A DNA stretch of 64,000 bases from contig NZ_JADX01000004.1 in the NCBI RefSeq assembly GCF_000518605.1, positions 1-64,000 of the forward strand, in the 5' to 3' direction. This document shows, in pieces, positions 50,633 through 63,350 of this stretch. Below the pieces are notes generated by a model. It did no database searches and had not been told where the DNA came from. It saw only the letters and a program-made list of their open reading frames with translations. The position numbers and the translations under genes are program-made. Positions within the stretch are counted from its first letter, which is position 1. Each line of letters begins with the position of its first letter. This DNA is from Shewanella fidelis ATCC BAA-318. Its GTDB lineage: Bacteria; Pseudomonadota; Gammaproteobacteria; Enterobacterales; Shewanellaceae.

Positions 50633-50677
50633 CCTGGAACTTTGTGAAAGTGTAAATTTAGGATAGATAAATAGAGT

Positions 50678-50707
50678 AAACCCAGTGTAAAAGCTGGGTT
50701 TTCTTTT
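50678..50707 (+). terminator. Rho-independent terminator of ssb
   Basis: The stem AAACCCAG and CTGGGTTT with an eight-base loop, followed by TCTTTTTT, lies 45 bases after the ssb stop. Confidence 0.85.
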
Positions 50708-50782
50708 TTACACTTTAATTTTGACAAGTAGGTCTTTAGTTTTAGACTTATAGATAATAAATGTGTAAAAAAAGGAGGTGTT

Positions 50783-50810
50783 TGGTAAGCTCCTAATATC
50801 TTAGACACTT
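50783..50810 (+). repeat. Left terminal inverted repeat of the IS3-family element
   Basis: TGGTAAGCTCCTAATATC followed by TTAGACACTT pairs with the right end at 51971-51998, allowing several mismatches in the middle. Confidence 0.75.
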
Positions 50811-51695
50811 AACTGTTTCTCAAAGTATTGCTTTTCGAACTGCATTGGAGACAGTCCATTATTACTACCATGACGACGCACAGGGTTATAGAAATATTCG
50901 ATATAGTTAAATATTTCCGAGCGAGCATCGCCTCTGTTTTTATGAACTTTTCTCTTAACTCTATCTTTCTTCAGCAATAAGAAAAAGCTTTCGGCGACAG
51001 CATTATCGTGACAGTTTCCTCGTCGACTCATACAGGCTTTTAAATTGTGCTCTTTTAAAAACTCCGCCAATCAGAACAGGTATATTGCACTCCTTGGTCG
51101 GAATGTATCAAAACCTTACTTTTCGGTGAACGTCGCCAAATGGCCATTAATAGCGCATCAATTACTAAGTCAGCTTTAGGTGTGTTTTTCATCGTCCAGC
51201 CCACGCTCTGACGAGAGAAGAGGTCAATAACAACTGTTAAATATAGCCAGCCCTCATGAGTGCGGATATAGGTAAAGTCGGTCACCCAAACCTTGTTGGG
51301 TTCTGCGACATCAAAGCCACGATTTAACGTATTTGGTGCAGTATGGCTAACATTCCCACCTCCAAAGCTTGGATTGCGCTTGTAGCCACGTATAGCCTTT
51401 ACCTTGGCTTCCTTCATTATCCGATAAACACGATTCTTCCCGACACTTTCACCATCGTCTTTCAAGTCTAAAGTCAGGTTTCGATAACCGTAGACACAAC
51501 CGCTTCTAGCCAAAATTGCTTAATTTTGCCCAGACAACATGTATCTTCAATGGTTCGATTACTGCTGGACTGCTTTAGCCAAGCATAAAAACCACTGCGA
51601 TGAACATTAAGCACTCGGCACAGTACGGCTATGGGATATTGGTCGAGTCGAGACTTTATGAACGTGTACTTTTCTTTGACTCGCTTGCAAAGCAC
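50801..51695 (-). pseudogene. IS3-family transposase OrfB, broken by two frameshifts
   Basis: The integrase-like OrfB would begin by -1 frameshifting from OrfA near the AAAGAAAAG run (about 51670). The DDE residues are still seen in VWVTDFTYIR, IHSDQGVQYTC and CHDNAVAESFF. Two single-base losses break the frame. Near 51504, GAAGCGG stands where GAAAGCGG would join WLE to SGCVYGYRN. Near 51067, TGGCGG stands where TGGGCGG would join SDW to AEFLKEHN. Both involve short runs of the same base, so decay or sequencing error are both possible. Confidence 0.88.
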
Positions 51696-51934
51696 ACGGC
51701 GGCATCCTTTAGTATAACTCGCCGAAGCTCTGCTTTTAGTTTACGAATTTCGTCTTGCTGATTATCGATAGTTATGTGTTGCTTCTCTGGTTTATCGAAC
51801 TTGTTAATCCAGTTGTGCAAGCTTTTGGTTGTTATACCGAATCTTTCTGCCACATAAGCGATTTTATAACCACGCTCAGTGACTTGTTTGACAGCTTCAA
51901 TTTTAAACTCATCGGGAAAACGTTTTCCGCGCAT
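51656..51934 (-). CDS. IS3-family transposase OrfA
   Basis: A protein of about 92 residues with the IS3 OrfA helix-turn-helix (RFPDEFKIEAVKQVTERGYK, GITTKSLHNWINKF) and a leucine-zipper region (QQDEIRKLKAELRRV). Between ELRRV and ILKDAAV about four or five residues usual in the family (TEERD) are missing, which points to a small in-frame deletion. The ATG at 51934 (MRGKRFP) is preferred. Confidence 0.85.
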   Translation of the reverse strand: MRGKRFPDEFKIEAVKQVTERGYKIAYVAERFGITTKSLHNWINKFDKPEKQHITIDNQQDEIRKLKAELRRVILKDAAVCFASESKKSTRS

Positions 51935-51970
51935 GTAACACCTCATACTTTGGGTCATTACAACTCTATG

Positions 51971-51998
51971 AAGTGTCTACTGTTCTAGGGGCTTACCA
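51971..51998 (-). repeat. Right terminal inverted repeat of the IS3-family element
   Basis: AAGTGTCTACTGTTCTAGGG then GCTTACCA is the inverted counterpart of 50783-50810. Confidence 0.75.
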
Positions 51999-52221
51999 AG
52001 TTACGAATATTGAAATAATTTTAGACAACTATGATATAAGCGTTCTTTCTTCATTAAGAGGCTTCTAAAAGTTACACGTGGTCAATTATTGCTCTATTTG
52101 TTTTTCGTTTTTGAATGGGGAGTTACAAAGTAGGTTTTAGGCAAATGACTAAAAGGCGCAACCATGCTAGACTGCATCCTTTATTAGATTATCATTTTGT
52201 ATACAGTGTTGGGGGTGTGGG

Positions 52222-53493
52222 GTGAGTTTGAGCGGAAAAGGCTCGGAGCTTTCAAAAAGTGATCCTATATATTCGACTAAGTTGCCGCTGCCTATGCAAT
52301 ATATGGGCGGCAAGGGGCGGATTGTAGGAAATATTTTGAATGGGGTAGAGGCTCAATTTAAGGATTTATCCCATTTCGTAGATCTTTTTTCTGGCTCTGG
52401 GGTTGTTGCATTCCATGCTCAAATGCGTGGCTATAAGGTTAGTGCTAACGATATTCAGCCTTATTCATCTGCTGTTTTGTCCTCGTTACTTACTCATTCA
52501 AGAACGGATATTGAAAGTCTAGTTCATTCATTGCAAGCCATATCAGATGATAAGTTGTTTCACAAAAGCAGAAGCATATACTTAGCTGATTACTTCAAAG
52601 AGAAGTCGTTTATTACGGCATTAAATGATAATAGGTTTATATGGGAAGATTATAGAGATTTTTGTGAATCTACAGAGCTATGTAATGGTACATTAGAGAG
52701 CGTTAGTGATTTAAAGTCTAATGAAGATTGGACGCTGTTTTTGGCATATTACCGTAATACGTACTTTGGTGTTAGACAGTGTGCTGAGATTGATTATTTA
52801 AGAGAATTGAGTGAAAGTTTGAGTGAGGATCTCAAGGCTCATTTAATCGCTAGTGTGGTTTCTGCTTTGACCTATTGTGTTTCAAGTACAACTCATTTAG
52901 CGCAATTTCTTAAACCATCTACAGATAAGAACTCTAAAAGTTTATTAGTGCGTAGAAATCTAAAAATTATTGATTTTGTTATAGAAAGATTAAATTTACT
53001 GACTTTAGTTGACTTGTCAGACTCAAATACTGTTTTTAATCTAGATTTTAAAGATGCGCTTAGAGAATTAGCATTAGATTCATCTTCAATAGTTTATGCT
53101 GATCCTCCTTACTTTAAGGAACATTATTCTAGGTACTACCATGTTTTGGATACTTTCGTACTTTACGATTATCCATTGCTTACTTTTAACCCTCGATTAG
53201 GTGAAACAACGAAGGGACGTTATCGAGATGATAGAATTGTTTCTGATTTTGGGAAAAAGAGCTTGGTTAGAGGTGCTTTTGATGAGCTTTGTAATTCTTG
53301 TCTCATTTATGGTAACAAATTAGCAATTAGTTACGCTTGCTCGTCACTAGTAGAAAAAGAGTTTTTCTATAAGTTAGCCGAAGAAAAAAAATTAAAACTA
53401 GAAGTGTTGGAGTTTAACTTGATGCATACAGGTCAAGGTCAAGCAAGGCACAAAGAAGTAACAGAATATTTATTTTTATTTTCAAATGAATAG
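52222..53493 (+). CDS. Dam-like (D12 class) DNA adenine methylase
   Basis: A 423-residue N6-adenine methyltransferase of the D12 class. The N-terminal motif MQYMGGKGRI and HFVDLFSGSGVVAF bind S-adenosylmethionine, and the catalytic DPPY lies at residues 294-297 (VYADPPYFKEHYSRYYH). The order FxGxG, then a long target-recognition segment, then DPPY is the alpha-class order of Dam. It is longer than Dam (about 280), mainly through the recognition segment. The start is GTG. It is the first gene of a three-gene operon, overlapping the next gene by eight bases. Base composition is clearly more AT-rich than the surrounding genes, suggesting transfer. Confidence 0.9.
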   Translation: MSLSGKGSELSKSDPIYSTKLPLPMQYMGGKGRIVGNILNGVEAQFKDLSHFVDLFSGSGVVAFHAQMRGYKVSANDIQPYSSAVLSSLLTHSRTDIESLVHSLQAISDDKLFHKSRSIYLADYFKEKSFITALNDNRFIWEDYRDFCESTELCNGTLESVSDLKSNEDWTLFLAYYRNTYFGVRQCAEIDYLRELSESLSEDLKAHLIASVVSALTYCVSSTTHLAQFLKPSTDKNSKSLLVRRNLKIIDFVIERLNLLTLVDLSDSNTVFNLDFKDALRELALDSSSIVYADPPYFKEHYSRYYHVLDTFVLYDYPLLTFNPRLGETTKGRYRDDRIVSDFGKKSLVRGAFDELCNSCLIYGNKLAISYACSSLVEKEFFYKLAEEKKLKLEVLEFNLMHTGQGQARHKEVTEYLFLFSNE

Positions 53494-55018
53494 TTTTAAA
53501 ACAAAAATTGAACGATTACTGCCAGAACACGATTATCCAGCAGGGTTGATTCATCCATACTGGGCTAGAAAGCCATTAAACATAATAGAAACAATTATCT
53601 GTCACTACACAAAAGAAGGGGACACTATTGCAGATCCTTTTATGGGGTCTGGTACATCAATAGTGGCGGCAGTTAAGAACAAAAGGAATGCCATTGGCTG
53701 TGACTTAAGTCCCGTTTCTAAATTATTAGTAGACTCAATACTTGGTTCAGCAAAAGACCCAATTCGACTTAAAAAAGTACTAGACCTCGCAGTTGAAGAT
53801 TGGATTAACTTTAGTAGTTTTCTATATCAGACAAATGATGGGAAGTGTGTTGAGCGTGAAACATTTTTTGTCGAGGGTAATTATGTAAATGGAGCATTTA
53901 CATTAGCTTTTGATGAAGCTAAGTTAAAACCATTGGTAAACGGTAACTTAAAAGGAAAGGTTGAAATTGTTAAGGAAGTCGAATTCATTAACCCTGTACC
54001 AATAAATTTATCAATCTCTCCTATAGACTTTTCCAAAATTGAATTTACTGAGAATACTCGTATTGCAGTTCATAAAGGGGCTAAAGCGTCTGATTTTTTT
54101 ACCAATAGAAATATAGTTTTTATAAACCATGTTCAAAATTACATAGCTAATAATGTTACTAATGATGAAGAAACTAAGTTTCTAAAATTATTCCTATCAT
54201 CAATGATTCCATTATTAAGACTTAGCGATAAGAAAGCTAGCTCTCAATGGCCTTACTGGAGGCCAAAAAAAGAGTTAACTTCACGAAATCCAATTGTTGC
54301 CATAAAGAGAAGATATAAATCTTTTGTCGATTGTTTAAAGTGGGAAGAAGGTGAGTTAAATACTGTAGATGCAAATGCTAAAGTGTTTCAAATACCTGCA
54401 GAGTTATTGCCATATAAATATCAGGGAAAAGTAGACTTAATTGTTACAGACCCTCCATATGCCGATCATGCGCCTTATTTAGAATATTCTGATTTGTATT
54501 GGTCTATTGTTGCTGGTGAAAGAACAGACGCTCTTTGGGATAAGGAGATTGTTAAGACTAATGCTGTAGGAAGGGAAAAAGACTCTCAGAACTATGAATC
54601 TAGAATGTTCGATACTATATCTTCTGTTTTATCCATGTTGAAAGATGGTGGTTATTTTGTGTTTTTTTATCTAGATAAGAATATACACCACTGGGAGTCG
54701 ATAAAAGCTGCAATAGAGCAATCTGGCTGTATTACTGAAGATGTTATTGCAATTCCAAAGCAAAGGCGATCAATGAAAGCTGTAACCTCTCCAGGTAAAA
54801 CTTTGGATGGAGATCTAATAGTCATATGTAAAAAGTTAGGAAGTAACAGTAAAATAAGTTTACCTAAGTTGGCTATGAAAGAAGTTCTATTAGAAATCGA
54901 GAGCATAGAGAATTCTACTTATTTTGAACGATTTGGGTTATTTATTAAAAAATATTTGACGGTAGAAGTATTAGACTTTAAAGATTGGTCTTTAAAAGAT
55001 ATATCAAGGGTTATATAG
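53486..55018 (+). CDS. Second DNA methyltransferase of the island
   Basis: A 510-residue DNA methyltransferase. The N-terminus carries HPYWARKPLNIIETI and the SAM-binding ADPFMGSGTS (residues 49-58), and the catalytic DPPY lies at residues 322-325 (IVTDPPYADHAPYLEYSDLY). The segment HPYWARKPL recalls the start of COG1743/DUF1156-type adenine methylases. About 265 residues lie between the two motifs and could hold target recognition. It resembles the methylase half of the following gene in motif order and local sequence, so the two may be paralogues. It overlaps the D12 methylase gene by eight bases; the next gene starts immediately after its stop. Confidence 0.85.
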   Translation: MNSFKTKIERLLPEHDYPAGLIHPYWARKPLNIIETIICHYTKEGDTIADPFMGSGTSIVAAVKNKRNAIGCDLSPVSKLLVDSILGSAKDPIRLKKVLDLAVEDWINFSSFLYQTNDGKCVERETFFVEGNYVNGAFTLAFDEAKLKPLVNGNLKGKVEIVKEVEFINPVPINLSISPIDFSKIEFTENTRIAVHKGAKASDFFTNRNIVFINHVQNYIANNVTNDEETKFLKLFLSSMIPLLRLSDKKASSQWPYWRPKKELTSRNPIVAIKRRYKSFVDCLKWEEGELNTVDANAKVFQIPAELLPYKYQGKVDLIVTDPPYADHAPYLEYSDLYWSIVAGERTDALWDKEIVKTNAVGREKDSQNYESRMFDTISSVLSMLKDGGYFVFFYLDKNIHHWESIKAAIEQSGCITEDVIAIPKQRRSMKAVTSPGKTLDGDLIVICKKLGSNSKISLPKLAMKEVLLEIESIENSTYFERFGLFIKKYLTVEVLDFKDWSLKDISRVI

Positions 55019-57361
55019 ATGTATTGGTTATTTAGTGAAGAAAAACAAAAAGAAATTCGTGAACTTATTGATAACTTAGTTATGTCTTTATCTGAAGTAA
55101 ATCATAAGCCTCCACACCAAGATCAAGTTTTTCCGTTTCAGGGAAGAAAGGCCATAAATCATGCTAAGACAGTTATTGATGCCCTAACTAGTGAAGGCGA
55201 TATAATTTGTGATCCATTTGTAGGGTCTGGGAGTTTTGCATACGCAGGTGCTATGTGTGACAGAAATGTTCTTGCTAATGAGTTTGAAGTTTATACAAAT
55301 CGCATGGCATTTGCTCCATTTTCCTTGCCTGACAAGCAAGAGCTTATAAACTCTTTCAATGAATTTGTGAGTCATATACGCCCATATATAGATAACCTCT
55401 ATCGCACTCGTTGTGTTTGCGGACAGATATTACCATTGGACTCATTATTCTTCGATAGATCCCCTCTACGTTACACAGGGGTAGCAAGCCATGAAAGGTT
55501 AGGAGATAATGGGGAAAATATAACTTTCCGTGGAAAATTTAAGTGTAAATCATGTGGTGCTATAGAAAAACACTTTGATGATTACGATCAAGAAGTTTTA
55601 GATACTATAGAAGCCGTAGAAGAGGACTTTTTTGAATTTAGGCTGATTGAAAACTCACGTATTAATTTGAGTTCTGATTTCTTAGACTATAAAAAACTGT
55701 TTCCAAAGAGAAGCAGGTTGGTTTTGACCTATCTTTGGAAAGAACTAGAATTATTTGCAATAGACCCTCTATGTAAGAAATTTATTGAAGATGCCTTACT
55801 TTCAGTAATTCCATTGGCTAAATACAAAGACTACAGAAGTAAGAGCCAAGATCTACATTGTCCGCCTCAAATGTTACGTGAGAGTAATATATTGAATGCT
55901 TTAATTAAGCAGGTTAATAAAAGGGCAAAAACTCTCTACGGGTATGACTTAAATAATTATCAAAATGCGGAGCTTCATTGCGATGATTTTCGAAGATTCT
56001 TGTCTTCTATTCAACCCGAAGGTGTTGATCTAGTTGTTACCGATCCTCCTTGGAATGATGGGAATGCTTATTTTGAAAGGGCACAGCTTTACCACCCTTG
56101 GTTAGGGTATGACTTAAAGGCAGACGATGACAGGCTGTCTAACGAAGTCATTGTAACAGACTCTCCTGAGCGCCCAGATAAGAGAGAAAAAGAACAATGG
56201 TGGAGTGATGTAGAGGACTTGTTTGAAAAGTCATATGTGGTATTAAAAGAACATGCTTTTTTAGTATTGTATTTTAGACCTGTGCCTGCAAATGAATGGA
56301 TCGTTAATTTCAATAGATTAAAGTTATTGGCAAGAATGAATGGCTTTGAACCTTTATTGACTTGTGATTTAACTAATAAAGATCCTTCCATGAGAATTCA
56401 GCAAAGTGCTCATTATGCGTTTAGTAGTGATTTAATTTTAACTTTCATTAAGCTAAGTGATAGTGAAAGAAGAGTTTATTGTGAAGGTCACGATGTCGAT
56501 GAGATTTCTTTTCGGGTCGCAGTAGAGCTACAGGATGAGTTGTTTGATGCTTTTACATTAACTCAGTGGCTGAAAGCTATGTATGAAAAGGTAAAATCAC
56601 TTGGTTTAATGCAATTGAACTTACCTAAGAATAGACATCTACTTCATGACTCATTCTTAAGAGTCTGTGAGGACAGAGGAACAGGTAAATACCTTCCTAA
56701 AGCAATAACTCCTTATTCGGATGAAATTTTTAATACGCCATACATTGAACGGGTTTCTTTATATGTGCCATATGTTATTGAAGAATTGTTATTTAAATCA
56801 GACAAATTTACGTTTGATCAATTTTTGTTAAAAATTGCTGAGTTTGTTGAGAATGGTACAAGAGCAATACTTAAAGATATATTGGAAGATTCTGAAAATT
56901 CAATCCATTCTTTACTAAACTTGTATGCAGAACCAATAGAGGGGGGGCTTTATTTCACAAAGCGTCCGCTACCTCAAATTCCTAGTAATATTGCAAACTT
57001 ATTGGAATTAGCCCCTTATGAGTTTGAAGTATTCACTGCAAAATTATTAGAATTAGAAGGGTTCACTAATGTTGTTGTTTCTGGACAAGCTGGAGACCGT
57101 GGTGTTGATGTACGTTGTAATGATGGAAATGGCGATTTAGTTATTGTTCAGTGTAAACGTTATACGAAATCAAATATCGGTTCTACTCCAATACAGAGGC
57201 TTCATAGTTTTGCTGTTACAAGGGGAGCTTCAAGAAAAATATGCATTACGACCACAGACTTTACTCGTGATGGCTATGATGAAGCTAAAAAAGCAGATGT
57301 AGAGCTAATTAATAGGGAAGCTTTAGAAAATTTGGTACATAAGCATAACTTGTTTAATTAG
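55019..57361 (+). CDS. DNA methyltransferase fused to a zinc ribbon and an Mrr-type nuclease
   Basis: A 780-residue fusion. Residues 40-90 hold the SAM-binding motif CDPFVGSGSFAYAG. Residues 132-179 hold a probable zinc ribbon (CVC and CKSC pairs). The catalytic motif is DPPW at 342-345. A helical region spans about 490-650. Residues about 665-775 form an Mrr-like restriction endonuclease: YEFEVFTAKLLELEGF, then Asp697 in GDRGVDV and Gln711-x-Lys713 in IVQCKRYTKS, the PD-(D/E)xK arrangement. Methylase and nuclease in one chain suggest a restriction-modification enzyme, with the two preceding methylases perhaps protecting both strands or different sites. That assignment is an inference. AT-rich; the ATG directly follows the preceding stop. 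Confidence 0.87.
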   Translation: MYWLFSEEKQKEIRELIDNLVMSLSEVNHKPPHQDQVFPFQGRKAINHAKTVIDALTSEGDIICDPFVGSGSFAYAGAMCDRNVLANEFEVYTNRMAFAPFSLPDKQELINSFNEFVSHIRPYIDNLYRTRCVCGQILPLDSLFFDRSPLRYTGVASHERLGDNGENITFRGKFKCKSCGAIEKHFDDYDQEVLDTIEAVEEDFFEFRLIENSRINLSSDFLDYKKLFPKRSRLVLTYLWKELELFAIDPLCKKFIEDALLSVIPLAKYKDYRSKSQDLHCPPQMLRESNILNALIKQVNKRAKTLYGYDLNNYQNAELHCDDFRRFLSSIQPEGVDLVVTDPPWNDGNAYFERAQLYHPWLGYDLKADDDRLSNEVIVTDSPERPDKREKEQWWSDVEDLFEKSYVVLKEHAFLVLYFRPVPANEWIVNFNRLKLLARMNGFEPLLTCDLTNKDPSMRIQQSAHYAFSSDLILTFIKLSDSERRVYCEGHDVDEISFRVAVELQDELFDAFTLTQWLKAMYEKVKSLGLMQLNLPKNRHLLHDSFLRVCEDRGTGKYLPKAITPYSDEIFNTPYIERVSLYVPYVIEELLFKSDKFTFDQFLLKIAEFVENGTRAILKDILEDSENSIHSLLNLYAEPIEGGLYFTKRPLPQIPSNIANLLELAPYEFEVFTAKLLELEGFTNVVVSGQAGDRGVDVRCNDGNGDLVIVQCKRYTKSNIGSTPIQRLHSFAVTRGASRKICITTTDFTRDGYDEAKKADVELINREALENLVHKHNLFN

Positions 57362-57587
57362 GTATAGTTGAACACATAGCTTTTGTAAAGTTAAGTGGGT
57401 TTATCTGGTCGAAGCACTTTTATATTTACATAAATCAGCAAAGTGTAAATATTGATATGTTTGTTGGCTTTTATTGTAATTTAAAGGTTTTACTCATTCA
57501 CTCGTACATTGCTTTTGAATTTTATACGTAAACTACCATTCTAGATGCTATAAAGCGATTGCTGTCTGAAACACAGTAACACGTTAC
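57362..57587. other. Short intergenic stretch after the methylase-nuclease gene
   Basis: About 225 AT-rich bases without a supported gene. The inverted end of the IS4-type element and its hairpin begin just after it. Confidence 0.45.
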
Positions 57588-57611
57588 AAAAACCAGCCTT
57601 ACGGCTAATGC
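57588..57611 (+). repeat. Left inverted end of the IS4-family element
   Basis: Twenty of 24 bases pair with 59030-59053; only the central TTAC is not symmetric. The hairpin AGCC-TTAC-GGCT at its centre could also act in termination. Confidence 0.65.
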
Positions 57612-57640
57612 CAGTCAGTTAAGTTGACTGGCATTTTTCT
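57607..57640 (+). terminator. Terminator-like hairpin
   Basis: AATGCCAGTCA and TGACTGGCATT (11 pairs) followed by TTTCTTTTT. It could end transcription of the methylase operon, whose last stop lies 245 bases upstream, and it also protects the inverted IS4 end from outside transcription. Confidence 0.7.
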
Positions 57641-58944
57641 TTTTATAGGGGGATTTGCTAGGTTTAGGTTGAACAGCCCTCGAAAAAACTCTATCTACTC
57701 GCTTTGTTTGTAGTTCAAAATTCCCAAGTATCTCTATCAGTTGCTCATAATGTTTTGGTAGATTGCCCGGGCTCATTAGTGGCAATCTGGCTAGATAGCT
57801 AAGTATCATACTCGCACAGTTTCTTAAGCTGAGGCGATTGGCCCATATTCCTTTTCTGGATGAGGCCTCTGTCATTGCTTGGCGCATCAGGTTATACCCT
57901 AGTAACAAGCCCCATAATTCCTGCTCAACCATCTTTGATTTTTTGCTTCTTAATGTGTACTCGTTGTTTAATAGTGTCTGTTTACATCTCTCTGTAGCTA
58001 AGCTCGATTTCTCAGCGATGACTATAAAGTTCTACGATTTCAGCACTTGAGAAGCGTAAGGGCTCAATCATTGAAGTTAATACTTGATGTAACTTCCCTT
58101 TTATTGACTTAGTCACTAGTCTCGCTTCAATGTACGTAGGTAAGTCAGGGTTTTGCTTCCGAGCTTGAGCCGATATTTTTAGTTTGACTTGTTTATCTAA
58201 TCGACCATTTGATTTTATGATTTCATATTGGAGCCCCTTTCTTACAGGTATCAGCCTGTTCCGTTCCTCACCGCTTTGCTGTCATTGATAGACTAAGTTT
58301 AAGGAGTAAAAGCCTTTATCGAATATTGTGAGGCTGTGATCTGGAGTGGACTGAATGAGCTCTTCTGCTAATTTTATTTCACTATTTTGGTAACGATCAA
58401 ATGCACTGTTTATCAGTTGATGGCTAGTCAGTTCCATATGGCACACCATTCGAACTTGAGGGAAAGAAGTGTCATCGCGCTGGTTTGATGGCGAGCCAAA
58501 AGCGAGGCGATTCTCAGGCGTGTCCTGAGTACGCCAAACAACACCATCAACAGCTAACAAGTTTAGCCCACACCAAGTCTCAAAATCAGCTTGCTTATAG
58601 TAATGTTCCGCCATCATTTGAAAGGAGTTTTTCATACTTTGAACACCAAGCCTCTGGCGCCCCTGAACGAGTGCACTTGGGGCAACGAGCTTCTTTTTAC
58701 CAGGTAACATTAGCTCCATGTGATTCGCGAGTTCCCATACAGACTGCTGTCGGTAGAAGCTCATACCAATCACTGACCACATAATGGCATCAAGTGGTAA
58801 TTAACGTTTCCTAACCGTGGCAACTCCAGCAGCCTCGAAGGCTTGCCGGATTATATTTTCATCCAATAAGTGATGGAGGTTTGTAAAAGCCGTGGCTTCT
58901 TGGTGGTATTCAAAAGCGGTACAGAAAGCTTGTTCTAAAGACAT
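57615..58944 (-). pseudogene. IS4-family transposase, degenerate
   Basis: A reading of about 443 codons from ATG 58944 (MSLEQAFCTAFEYHQEATAF) recovers a full-length IS4 transposase, including [13 protein letters not shown] and the late YREM (Y-(2)R-(3)E-(6)K type) region. It is broken by an in-frame TAA at 58801-58803, a TGA at 58282-58284, a TGA at 58012-58014 (the last two appear to replace Trp codons TGG), and an extra base near 57984 after which the frame continues as MVEQELWGLLLGYNLMRQAM. The gene is inactive. Confidence 0.85.
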
Positions 58945-58947
58945 AAA

Positions 58948-58979
58948 AAAATCCAATATCATTTCTGATATTGGATTTT
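58948..58979. terminator. Inverted repeat upstream of the IS4 transposase
   Basis: AAAATCCAATATCA and TGATATTGGATTTT form a perfect 14-base inverted repeat with a TTTC loop, with A/T runs on both sides. It lies just upstream of the transposase start and would block read-through transcription into it. Confidence 0.75.
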
Positions 58980-59029
58980 GAAGCCTTTTAAAGATCGGAC
59001 AATTGATCGTTTATATTCTTAAATGATCA

Positions 59030-59053
59030 GCATTAGCCTTACGGCTGGTTTTT
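59030..59053 (-). repeat. Right inverted end of the IS4-family element
   Basis: GCATTAGCCTTACGGCTGG then TTTTT, the inverted counterpart of 57588-57611. Confidence 0.65.
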
Positions 59054-59266
59054 TTGTACCTGCGCCCCCCTACAAAAGTACTACGCCCTTTTTCTATTTT
59101 TAGTCATAGAGCGATAAACAGCCTTGCGAGAGCATCAAAATTAATCTGATAGCTGTTAGGGTAGAAAAACGATAAATACAGGCAGCTTTTTAGCACCGCT
59201 TTAGTTTTATTAGTTAGTGGTGTCGCCGCTGTATTTGGTTATTTTAATACTAGGACTGTATTAGCT

Positions 59267-61838: not shown

Positions 61839-63350
61839 TTAGTTTTGCATAACAGTCGCAGTGTTGAAATCACCTGTCTGCGTTACGTTAATAACGTTAC
61901 TAGAACCGGTTTGTGAACCCATAACTAAGTTGTCATTGCCTGTTTGTGCAATAGTTAGGGTGTTATCAACACCGTTAACTTCAAAGGCACTATCAACTTC
62001 GCCGCCAACCCAGTTACCGTTACCGTTTTGTGCAATAGTCGCGATGTTTTCGTCACCGACAATAATCAGATCGATTAGGTTAAGATCGCCTTCTTGAGTC
62101 ATTTCAACTTCGCTGTTATCAAGACCAACAACAGACACTAATGCTTCGTTCTCATTGCCATCTTGCTCAACGTCAACATCGTTGCCAAAGCCAAACACAT
62201 CAGCGTAGCCAAAGTTGTCATTGCCTTCTTGAGCGATTTCAATGCTGTTATCATCTAGTTCAGTGAAAGCAACGGCCTCATTATTGTTGCCATCTGAAAT
62301 GATTGAAATATCGTTATCATCACCGTACTGTCCAAAAGTGGCAAAGTTGCTATCGCCTTCTTGGTCAAGTGTTACGCTGTTTTCACTGCCCCAGACTTGA
62401 AACTCTGCTGCGTTATTGTCGCCATCTTGTTCGATACGAAGTGTATTGTCATCACCTTGAATATCAGCAATTAAGGTATCTCCGATAGTATTAGATACGC
62501 CATCTTGCTCAATCTCTATATCGTTATCATTGCCTGTTGTAACGGCTAGATAAGCTGTGTTGTTTGTACCGATTTGATCGATTTCTATTTCATTATCAGA
62601 GCCTGTCAGCTGATAAACAAACCCGGTGTTATCATTACCTTCTTGTGATACGACAAAGTTATTGTTATCGCCTGCAACGCCCTTTACGGCACCTAAGTTG
62701 TTATTACCTTCTTGGTACACTTCGACATCATTGTTGTTACCCACGTTAGGTGTGATGTCTAAAGATACAAAGCCTGCTACGTTATCATCACCATACTGGG
62801 TGATATCGCCGTCATTACCATCGCCTTCAACACGAAAAGTCGCAAAGTTGTTATTGCCGTCTTGTTCAATATAACCTGTGTTTTCATCGCCAATGAGTTC
62901 AACTACACTACTATTTTGCTCGCCAGCTTGAGTGACGTCGACTTCATTGCCATCACCGCTAACGTCAATATCAAGCTCATTGAAAAAGCCAGACTGACCA
63001 ACATCGACTACGTTATCGTTACCAGTGACGTCCGCTGAAGTTATATGCCAGTCTTCAGTTTGGTTGATGTCTATTATGTTTCCTTCACCAGTAGACTCAA
63101 CATAGGCCTCAATCCATACACCGTCTTGAGTGATATTTGTTTCTTGAGCATCACCAGTTTGTGTGACTGTCGCAATATGCAGATCACCTGTTTGTCGAAC
63201 GGTTGCGTCTTGACCAACAACAGCCCCCGAAGCCGCTGTTGTTTGGTTGATTTCTACAGCGTTTGCGGAATCTGCTAGGGCGTTGCTACTGATACCTAAG
63301 CTTGCTGTAATGGCAAGTGCGATCATGGTTTTAGTTGTTTGCGATCTCAT
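61839..63350 (-). CDS. csgA: Major curlin CsgA with an expanded repeat array
   Basis: The major subunit of curli amyloid fibres, exported through CsgG. The 503-residue protein has a signal peptide (TMIALAITASLGISSNALA) followed by about twenty imperfect curlin repeats of 22-25 residues, each with the pattern xIxQxGxxN and a second half xxxxGxxN, for example IEQDGNNNFATFRVEGDGN, VYQEGNNNLGAVKGVAGDNN and VEQDGNENEALVSVVGLDN. Escherichia coli CsgA has five repeats in 151 residues. It is strongly acidic, with many Asp and Glu in the turns. GGGAGAG precedes the ATG. It lies 14 bases downstream of csgB in one operon. No csgC follows. Confidence 0.92.
   Translation of the reverse strand: MRSQTTKTMIALAITASLGISSNALADSANAVEINQTTAASGAVVGQDATVRQTGDLHIATVTQTGDAQETNITQDGVWIEAYVESTGEGNIIDINQTEDWHITSADVTGNDNVVDVGQSGFFNELDIDVSGDGNEVDVTQAGEQNSSVVELIGDENTGYIEQDGNNNFATFRVEGDGNDGDITQYGDDNVAGFVSLDITPNVGNNNDVEVYQEGNNNLGAVKGVAGDNNNFVVSQEGNDNTGFVYQLTGSDNEIEIDQIGTNNTAYLAVTTGNDNDIEIEQDGVSNTIGDTLIADIQGDDNTLRIEQDGDNNAAEFQVWGSENSVTLDQEGDSNFATFGQYGDDNDISIISDGNNNEAVAFTELDDNSIEIAQEGNDNFGYADVFGFGNDVDVEQDGNENEALVSVVGLDNSEVEMTQEGDLNLIDLIIVGDENIATIAQNGNGNWVGGEVDSAFEVNGVDNTLTIAQTGNDNLVMGSQTGSSNVINVTQTGDFNTATVMQN

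What the first reader, a model, noticed from the sequence alone, without database searches (positions are those of the whole stretch)
52222..57361. Three DNA methylases, the last fused to an Mrr nuclease, in one coupled operon
Seen directly: three genes with eight-base overlap and zero gap, each with a SAM-binding FxGxG-type motif and a catalytic DPPY/DPPW, the third ending in a PD-(D/E)xK nuclease of the Mrr type (Asp697, Gln711-x-Lys713). Known: DpnII-like systems use two adenine methylases with a separate nuclease, and Mrr nucleases usually act alone on modified DNA. Three methylases with the nuclease fused to one of them is not an arrangement I recognise as a named system. Inference: a restriction-modification or defence system, possibly with an asymmetric target needing more than one methylase.
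Basis: partly seen in the sequence, partly recalled or inferred. Interest (0 to 1): 0.75.

Follow-up and report, generated by a model that had tools for sequence, protein, structure and literature searches.

The report
Three-methylase restriction system with fused nuclease
A three-gene DNA-cutting defence set, seen in distantly related bacteria and in phages, probably marks the cell's own DNA with two enzymes and checks and cuts foreign DNA with a third that is part methylase and part nuclease; the plan is known from a few restriction systems, but this version is built from different parts.

Summary
M1 (52222-53493), M2 (53486-55018) and M3 (55019-57361) are intact DNA methylases; M3 ends in an Mrr-type PD-QxK nuclease. 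It is not a one-off: of 45 loci (bacterial genomes, phage contigs, the window), 40 hold all three parts; in the other five the contig ends or the copy is broken. Divergences of the parts correlate at r 0.91-0.97, M3 forms one clade, and the nuclease residues are invariant in 41 of 41. In 23 of the 40, M1 and M2 are one protein.

Best reading: a Type II restriction-modification system. M1 and M2 methylate the two strands of a non-palindromic site; M3 is the combined restriction-modification enzyme. That organisation already has names: BpuSI (RM & M1 & M2) and BseRI (RM & M1~M2) (PMC3874165). The chassis differs: an alpha-order methylase with a C-terminal Mrr nuclease, an order described for BtgZI, not an N-terminal nuclease with a gamma methylase. 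New variant of a known kind.

Most telling detail: 18 of 42 M3 proteins, one clade, have DFPY instead of DPPY, which bears on the open question of why such nucleases keep a methylase.

The parts
52222..53493 (+). M1: D12-class (Dam-like) adenine methylase, 423 aa, GTG start; motif I DLFSGSG, motif IV ADPPY
   Evidence: MethyltransfD12 4.9e-19; profile of M1 hits Dam structures 1yfj, 1.8e-7; start agrees with relatives in the alignment
53486..55018 (+). M2: N6_N4-type methylase with motif order I (DPFMGSG) then IV (TDPPY), 510 aa
   Evidence: (9e-25); AlphaFold2 mean pLDDT 89.2, pTM 0.90
55019..57361 (+). M3: combined restriction-modification protein, 780 aa: methylase of the same type as M2, linker, C-terminal Mrr nuclease
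   Evidence: AlphaFold2 mean pLDDT 81.4, pTM 0.71; methylase fold over residues 18-482 and nuclease fold 665-779
55211..55231 (+). M3 motif I, DPFVGSG (residues 65-71), SAM binding (role from general knowledge)
   Evidence: 42 of 42 rows keep DPFxGSG
55412..55555 (+). M3 Cys132, Cys134, Cys176, Cys179: probable zinc site inside the insert between motifs I and IV, candidate target-recognition region
   Evidence: C132 42 of 42; the other three 40 of 42 each; zinc and recognition roles are inference
56039..56053 (+). M3 motif IV, TDPPW (residues 341-345)
   Evidence: T341, D342, P344 42 of 42; P343 24 of 42, Phe in 18
56486..56962 (+). M3 linker, residues 490-648: one helix-helix-helix-hairpin unit (493-560), which I read as a winged helix, and a second, less certain one (575-648)
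   Evidence: secondary structure of the model: pLDDT block means 86-93 for 471-560, 50-78 for 561-650; no Pfam match
57002..57334 (+). M3 Mrr_cat nuclease domain, residues 662-772 (E670, D697, Q711-x-K713)
   Evidence: 2.3e-24; 41 of 41 rows invariant; 1y88 Z 14.6, rmsd 2.5, 112 aligned
50633..59256 (.). inserted segment: absent from a close relative, where the two flanks lie 277 bp apart
   Evidence: blastn of window against L182; G+C of the operon 0.335-0.355 against 0.434 before it

Best explanation
A Type II restriction-modification system of the combined (IIC/IIG-like) kind. [quoted passage not shown] M3 is the combined enzyme: its methylase part, with its zinc-bearing insert and probably the linker, reads the same site; if the site is unmethylated, the C-terminal Mrr (PD-QxK) domain, which has one catalytic centre, pairs with that of a second molecule and cuts at a fixed distance, I predict with a 4-base 5' overhang. 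M3's own methylation is probably secondary. Shown here: the parts, their conservation, their joint inheritance, their acquisition by transfer. Inferred: that the three share one site, that it is asymmetric, that the bases are adenines, and the mode of cutting.
For: Joint inheritance: M1, M2 and M3 together in 40 of 45 loci, the rest cut or broken; pairwise-distance correlations of the four domains over 37 loci 0.906-0.970, largest of 2000 permutations 0.308; M3 one clade (SH-aLRT 100) and M2 one clade (85, below the 95 mark), both split in the same three groups. M1~M2 fusion in 23 of 40: fused methylase pairs go with asymmetric sites, e.g. M12.MhoVII, a fusion of a YhdJ-type and a D12-type methylase that methylates GATG and CATC (PMC12898733, passages). 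RM plus two methylases is the organisation of BpuSI and BseRI (PMC3874165, passages). Nuclease residues 41 of 41. dN/dS 0.02-0.16 in resolved pairs, one exception. PD-QxK enzymes with known cuts leave a 4-base 5' overhang: MspJI 12/16 (PMC12707154, passages), BtgZI 10/14 (PMC4081073, passages). A two-domain HTH gene just before M3 in 15 of 45 loci, like the control genes of restriction systems.
Against: No activity, methylome or target is known for any member that I found. No control gene is next to the window's copy. 18 of 42 M3 have DFPY, so the methylase part may not methylate in those. The Mrr family is best known for cutting modified DNA. The two BpuSI accompanying methylases make different bases (m6A and m5C), so the parallel is of layout, not of parts. 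The operon's promoter was not found: promoter-like matches were fewer than in shuffles (11 against a mean of 20.7).
Confidence: 0.75

Rival explanations
1. M3 is a modification-dependent (Type IV-like) nuclease that happens to carry a methylase: the Mrr domain cuts wrongly or partly methylated DNA, the linker winged helix being the methyl reader, and M1 and M2 set the mark that is tolerated.
For: Mrr_cat is the Type IV Mrr domain, and M3's linker has at least one winged-helix-like unit in the model; winged helices read 6mA in DpnI and other nucleases (PMC11037411, passages).
Against: Type IV nucleases stand alone: 87% of the winged-helix fusions in PMC11037411 had no methylase within three genes, whereas every M3 whose contig goes on has two. 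FokI also has a winged helix and is not methyl-dependent (same paper). PD-QxK Mrr-like domains also serve enzymes that cut unmodified DNA (Type ISP, PMC3874165; BtgZI).
Confidence: 0.12
2. The three methylases have separate targets and serve gene regulation or the protection of a mobile element's DNA; the nuclease is a side function.
For: Some copies lie among phage genes: portal and terminase in L048, primase/helicase in L047, DNA polymerase and helicase in L049; phages often carry methylases for self-protection (general knowledge).
Against: Nuclease residues invariant in 41 of 41 and under purifying selection; a nuclease with no matching methylase would kill the host; fixed association of the same three families.
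Confidence: 0.08
3. It is a remnant or branch of a larger ATP-dependent system (BREX-like PglX, or McrBC/LlaJI-like) that has lost or borrowed its other subunits.
For: M2 and M3 resemble PglXI (5.7e-21 and 3.2e-11); M1- and M2-like methylases on plasmids sit next to LlaJI/McrBC-type genes.
Against: No ATPase or PglZ in the inserted segment, and no such gene recurs beside the 45 loci: the two recurring neighbours in more than 3 loci are the HTH gene (15) and a PvuII-like ORF (6).
Confidence: 0.05

Closest known systems
BpuSI system (Type IIS/C/G; RM.BpuSI, M1.BpuSI, M2.BpuSI)
   Same: Three enzymes: one combined nuclease-methylase and two separate methylases, all with methylase activity; both accompanying methylases are needed for stable maintenance (PMC3817140, passages).
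   Different: RM.BpuSI has the nuclease at the N-terminus, a gamma-class methylase and a C-terminal recognition domain; M2.BpuSI makes m5C. M3 has an I-to-IV methylase first and an Mrr nuclease last, and all three methylases carry DPPY-type motifs. The M3 profile finds no BpuSI chain among the 16 PDB sequences at E up to 1.
BseRI system (Type IIG; RM & M1~M2)
   Same: Combined enzyme plus a fusion of two methylases (PMC3874165, passages), as in 23 of 40 relatives of the window's system.
   Different: Gamma-class chassis, 2-base 3' overhang (GAGGAG 10/8); its fused partner is an m4C methylase joined to a gamma methylase.
BtgZI (Type IIC)
   Same: N-terminal alpha-class methylase and C-terminal PD-(D/E)XK domain with Gln for Glu, the order of M3 (PMC4081073, passages).
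   Different: Its sequence was not on hand, so homology is untested; whether it has one, two or no accompanying methylases is not said in the passages that I saw.
MhoVII (Type II, Mycoplasma hominis)
   Same: Fused pair of a D12-type and an N6_N4 (YhdJ)-type adenine methylase that serves a non-palindromic site (PMC12898733, passages).
   Different: Nuclease is a separate protein without methylase; fusion order reversed.
Mrr and other Type IV nucleases
   Same: Catalytic domain (Mrr_cat 2.3e-24).
   Different: Stand-alone; here the domain is part of a methylase and comes with two more.

Membership tests
Type IIC (combined restriction and modification in one protein) | nuclease and methylase domains in one chain | tested here: met
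   residues conserved in 41 and 42 rows
Type IIC (combined restriction and modification in one protein) | both activities demonstrated, cut at a fixed place near a specific unmodified site | not testable with these tools
   needs expressed protein
BpuSI/BseRI-like Type IIG system | organisation: RM protein plus two accompanying methylases, separate or fused | tested here: met
   40 of 45 loci; 17 separate, 23 fused
BpuSI/BseRI-like Type IIG system | N-terminal PD-EXK domain, gamma-class methylase, C-terminal recognition domain | tested here: not met
   M3 has I-to-IV methylase first, Mrr domain last; so it is not filed as a member of that protein family
BpuSI/BseRI-like Type IIG system | sequence homology to RM.BpuSI | tested here: inconclusive
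   no BpuSI chain among 16 PDB sequences at E up to 1 with the M3 profile; that BpuSI is in the PDB comes from PMC4081073
BpuSI/BseRI-like Type IIG system | SAM stimulates cutting | not testable with these tools
   needs enzyme assay
BtgZI-type IIC | N-terminal alpha-class methylase, C-terminal PD-(D/Q)XK domain | tested here: met
   motif I before motif IV, Q711-x-K713 at the C-terminus
BtgZI-type IIC | sequence homology to BtgZI | not tested
   BtgZI sequence not on hand
Type IV Mrr | stand-alone nuclease without its own methylase | tested here: not met
   domain fused to a methylase and next to two more
Type IV Mrr | cuts modified DNA only | not testable with these tools
   needs enzyme assay
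DpnII-like Type II | nuclease a separate protein | tested here: not met
   nuclease is the C-terminal domain of M3
BREX | PglZ and BrxC-type ATPase beside PglX | tested here: not met
   ORFs of the inserted segment are IS genes and M1-M3 only
LlaJI/McrBC-type | AAA+ GTPase and McrC-like subunit | tested here: not met
   none in the inserted segment
catalogued defence system (PADLOC-DB 2.0.0) | a model that covers the whole M3 architecture | tested here: not met
   best matches are generic MTase_II, ZorD and PDC-S02 parts; 25 of 48 families shown for M3, 12 for P0004

The most novel reading that the evidence does not exclude
Writing and reading of the mark are split: M1 and M2 write it, and the methylase part of M3 has become a SAM-bound inspector that flips or probes the target adenine and licenses its own Mrr domain, instead of a protective enzyme. 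In one clade (18 of 42) this has gone as far as replacing the first Pro of the catalytic DPPY by Phe while the SAM-binding motif, the zinc cysteines and the nuclease stay conserved and under purifying selection.
Probability: 0.25. Interest if true: 0.65.

Novelty: new variant of a known kind. Interest (0 to 1): 0.45.

Why it matters
It adds a widespread lineage, so far without a model in the libraries searched, to the few known restriction systems in which a combined enzyme comes with two methylases, and it does so on an unrelated chassis, which suggests that this three-enzyme plan arose more than once. [quoted passage not shown] The family holds a natural experiment on that question: close relatives with DPPY and with DFPY. 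The predicted PD-QxK cut at a distance would also give new cutting specificities with 4-base 5' overhangs.

Tried and rejected
Single-protein scans of viral contigs with P0003 and P0004 found no relative, and two-row alignments only two generic methylases, because the tool chose poor patterns; a hand-made degenerate DNA pattern for FxGRK-x20-DPFxG then gave 3 of 3 true relatives. The pattern selects for that motif, so members without it are missed and the loci are not a random sample; of its 83 ORFs, 43 were M3, 30 M2-like without Mrr, 10 other (80 of 82 genome stretches were listed).

Rejected: chance or misannotation; vestigial nuclease; BREX or McrBC remnant; one-off fusion in this genome. 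A homology test against BtgZI was not possible. Foldseek alone gave weak matches for both models; VIA-align gave the methylase and nuclease folds, but the linker was hardly tested. A Pfam scan of the linker at E up to 10 gave nothing usable. A promoter scan gave nothing. REBASE was not available, so a REBASE entry for a relative is not excluded.

Dropped rows: Mantel used 37 of 45 loci; M1 rows of L161 and L170 left out because the gene is in two frames, and L047, L071, L136, L167, L169 and L171 because a domain is missing or cut. The tree used 24 of the 30 M2-like ORFs, the quick method, midpoint root, and warned of long branches. 16 pairs were put to dN/dS; many were saturated, and one near-identical pair gave 0.32 for M3 from 3 synonymous and 4 other changes.
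Full report
OBSERVATION. Pfam names them MethyltransfD12, N6_N4_Mtase, and N6_N4_Mtase plus Mrr_cat. In M2 and M3 motif I (DPFxGSG) comes before motif IV (DPPY/W), so the Pfam beta-type model matches them in two pieces; M2 and M3 are related to each other (24% over M3 residues 36-436). NCBIfam has no model over its cut-off for any of the three, and PADLOC-DB only generic methylase and Mrr parts (25 of 48 families shown for M3).

HOW RARE. In the own genome M3 occurs once. Of 394 genomes of the order, 50 have some match, mostly to the Mrr part, but only the own genome has one that spans the protein. With the methylase profile, 1 of 369 genomes of the class matches, the own one. No plasmid record covers 80% of M3 (28 records matched in part); one record of the phage collection does, MT836948.1 from human faeces (98% at 27.1%).

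A FAMILY. MT836948.1 (L032) carries a 797-aa relative of M3 (27%) and, on the other strand, a 964-aa protein whose halves match M1 (28%) and M2 (26%). From P0003 and P0004 I made a DNA pattern for FxGRK-x20-DPFxG: 3 viral contigs (all three full or cut relatives) and 82 stretches of GTDB genome contigs, 80 listed. Of the 83 ORFs that carry it, 43 are M3, 30 are M2-like methylases without Mrr and 10 are something else. No M3 that could be read to its end lacked an Mrr piece; in L051 and L107 the piece is in the next frame. Longer stretches were fetched for 40 of 42 held records (L071 was not held, L047 and L048 were kept as they were). By record titles the hosts include Lachnospiraceae and other Clostridia, Bacilli, Lactobacillus, Photorhabdus, Legionella, Cryobacterium, Arthrobacter, Desulfobacteraceae, Spirochaetia, Campylobacterales and Gastranaerophilales.

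JOINT INHERITANCE. With L032, L047, L048, L071 and the window this makes 45 loci. In 40, M1, M2 and M3 are all there. The other five: L047, L136 and L169 stop at a contig end (the DNA of L047's M3 is the same as that of L141, which is complete); L167 has the C-terminal piece of M2 at 98% identity to L147 and broken frames; L171 is an M3 fragment. M1 and M2 are one protein in 23 of 40. The layout is co-directional in 18 and opposed in 22. Over 37 loci the pairwise distances of M1, M2, M3 and Mrr correlate at 0.906-0.970, against at most 0.308 in 2000 permutations. In a tree of 106 rows M3 is one side of a branch (SH-aLRT 100), M2 another (85), and the M2-like singles a third (100); M2 and M3 divide into the same three groups, and the opposed layout is one of them (quick method, long-branch warning). 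dN/dS lies between 0.02 and 0.16 for all four domains in the pairs where it is defined and not zero, with one exception of 0.32 in a near-identical pair.

RESIDUES. See the observation check. The four cysteines 132, 134, 176 and 179 are kept in 42, 40, 40 and 40 of 42, probably a zinc site. The Phe at 343 is found in 18 of 42, and these 18 rows are exactly one clade (98) of the opposed group. Their motif I is intact.

STRUCTURE. M2: pLDDT 89.2, pTM 0.90. M3: 81.4, 0.71. VIA-align gives M3 a methylase fold (best 6zxv_B, Z 15.9, rmsd 3.3, 183 aligned) and a nuclease fold (1y88, Z 14.6, rmsd 2.5, 112 aligned, residues 665-779). Between them the model has a well-predicted three-helix and hairpin unit (493-560) that I read as a winged helix, and a weaker second one.

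NEIGHBOURS AND ORIGIN. In a close relative (L182; SSB 99% identical) the flanks of window 50633-59256 lie 277 bp apart; the insert holds an IS3-type element (inverted arms 50782-51999), the operon, and an IS4-type remnant (arms 57588-59053). The operon is at 0.335-0.355 G+C against 0.434 before it. Among relatives, an HTH gene with two Cro/cI-like halves directly precedes M3 in 15 of 45 loci, and a PvuII-like ORF (Pfam 2e-6 for L032's) lies beyond it in 6. The window copy has neither. L047, L048 and L049 lie among phage genes.

WHAT IT WORKS LIKE. Asymmetric sites need a methylase for each strand, as two proteins or a fusion (PMC12707154, passages). MhoVII shows that for a fused D12 plus YhdJ-type pair (PMC12898733, passages). 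The combined enzyme with two accompanying methylases is BpuSI's and BseRI's organisation (PMC3874165, passages); RM.BpuSI's own methylase is 4-6 times weaker than M1's and is thought not to protect the host (PMC3817140, passages). I therefore read M1 and M2 as the writers and M3 as reader and cutter. Membership in the BpuSI protein family fails on domain order; the order agrees with BtgZI, whose sequence I could not test.

PRINT. Ten searches of the paper library showed no paper on this family; they cover open-licence PubMed Central papers only, and I read passages of seven, none in full. REBASE could not be searched. The verdict is a new variant of a known kind.

Noticed in passing
L032 15-857; also L132, L133, L134, L136, L139 beside the HTH gene: A 280-334 aa ORF with a PvuII-nuclease-like match (2e-6) stands beyond the HTH gene in six opposed-layout loci: perhaps a second nuclease of the same system, or a passenger.
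   Followed up: partly
L034, L036 (plasmids), and 30 of 83 pattern hits: A separate clade of M2-like methylases without Mrr; two plasmid cases, found by similarity, sit beside DUF2357/ATPase (McrBC-like) pairs. Whether that holds for the clade was not counted.
   Followed up: partly
L039 4824-8856: E. coli plasmid pTE_T100_3: two D12-type adenine methylases with an LlaJI-family nuclease and an AAA ATPase, an adenine version of the LlaJI plan.
   Followed up: no
window 61839-63350 (-): A 503-aa curlin-repeat protein (Curlin_rpt 9e-71, 10 stretches passing), much longer than the 141-aa one beside it, next to csgE, csgF and csgG.
   Followed up: no
window 57588-59053: Decayed IS4-type transposase copy with 36-base inverted arms; a 13-pair terminator-like hairpin at 57607-57635 lies in its left arm, just after M3.
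   Followed up: no
L161, L167, L168, L170: Frame-shifted copies of M1 or M3: decay or sequencing error, not settled.
   Followed up: partly
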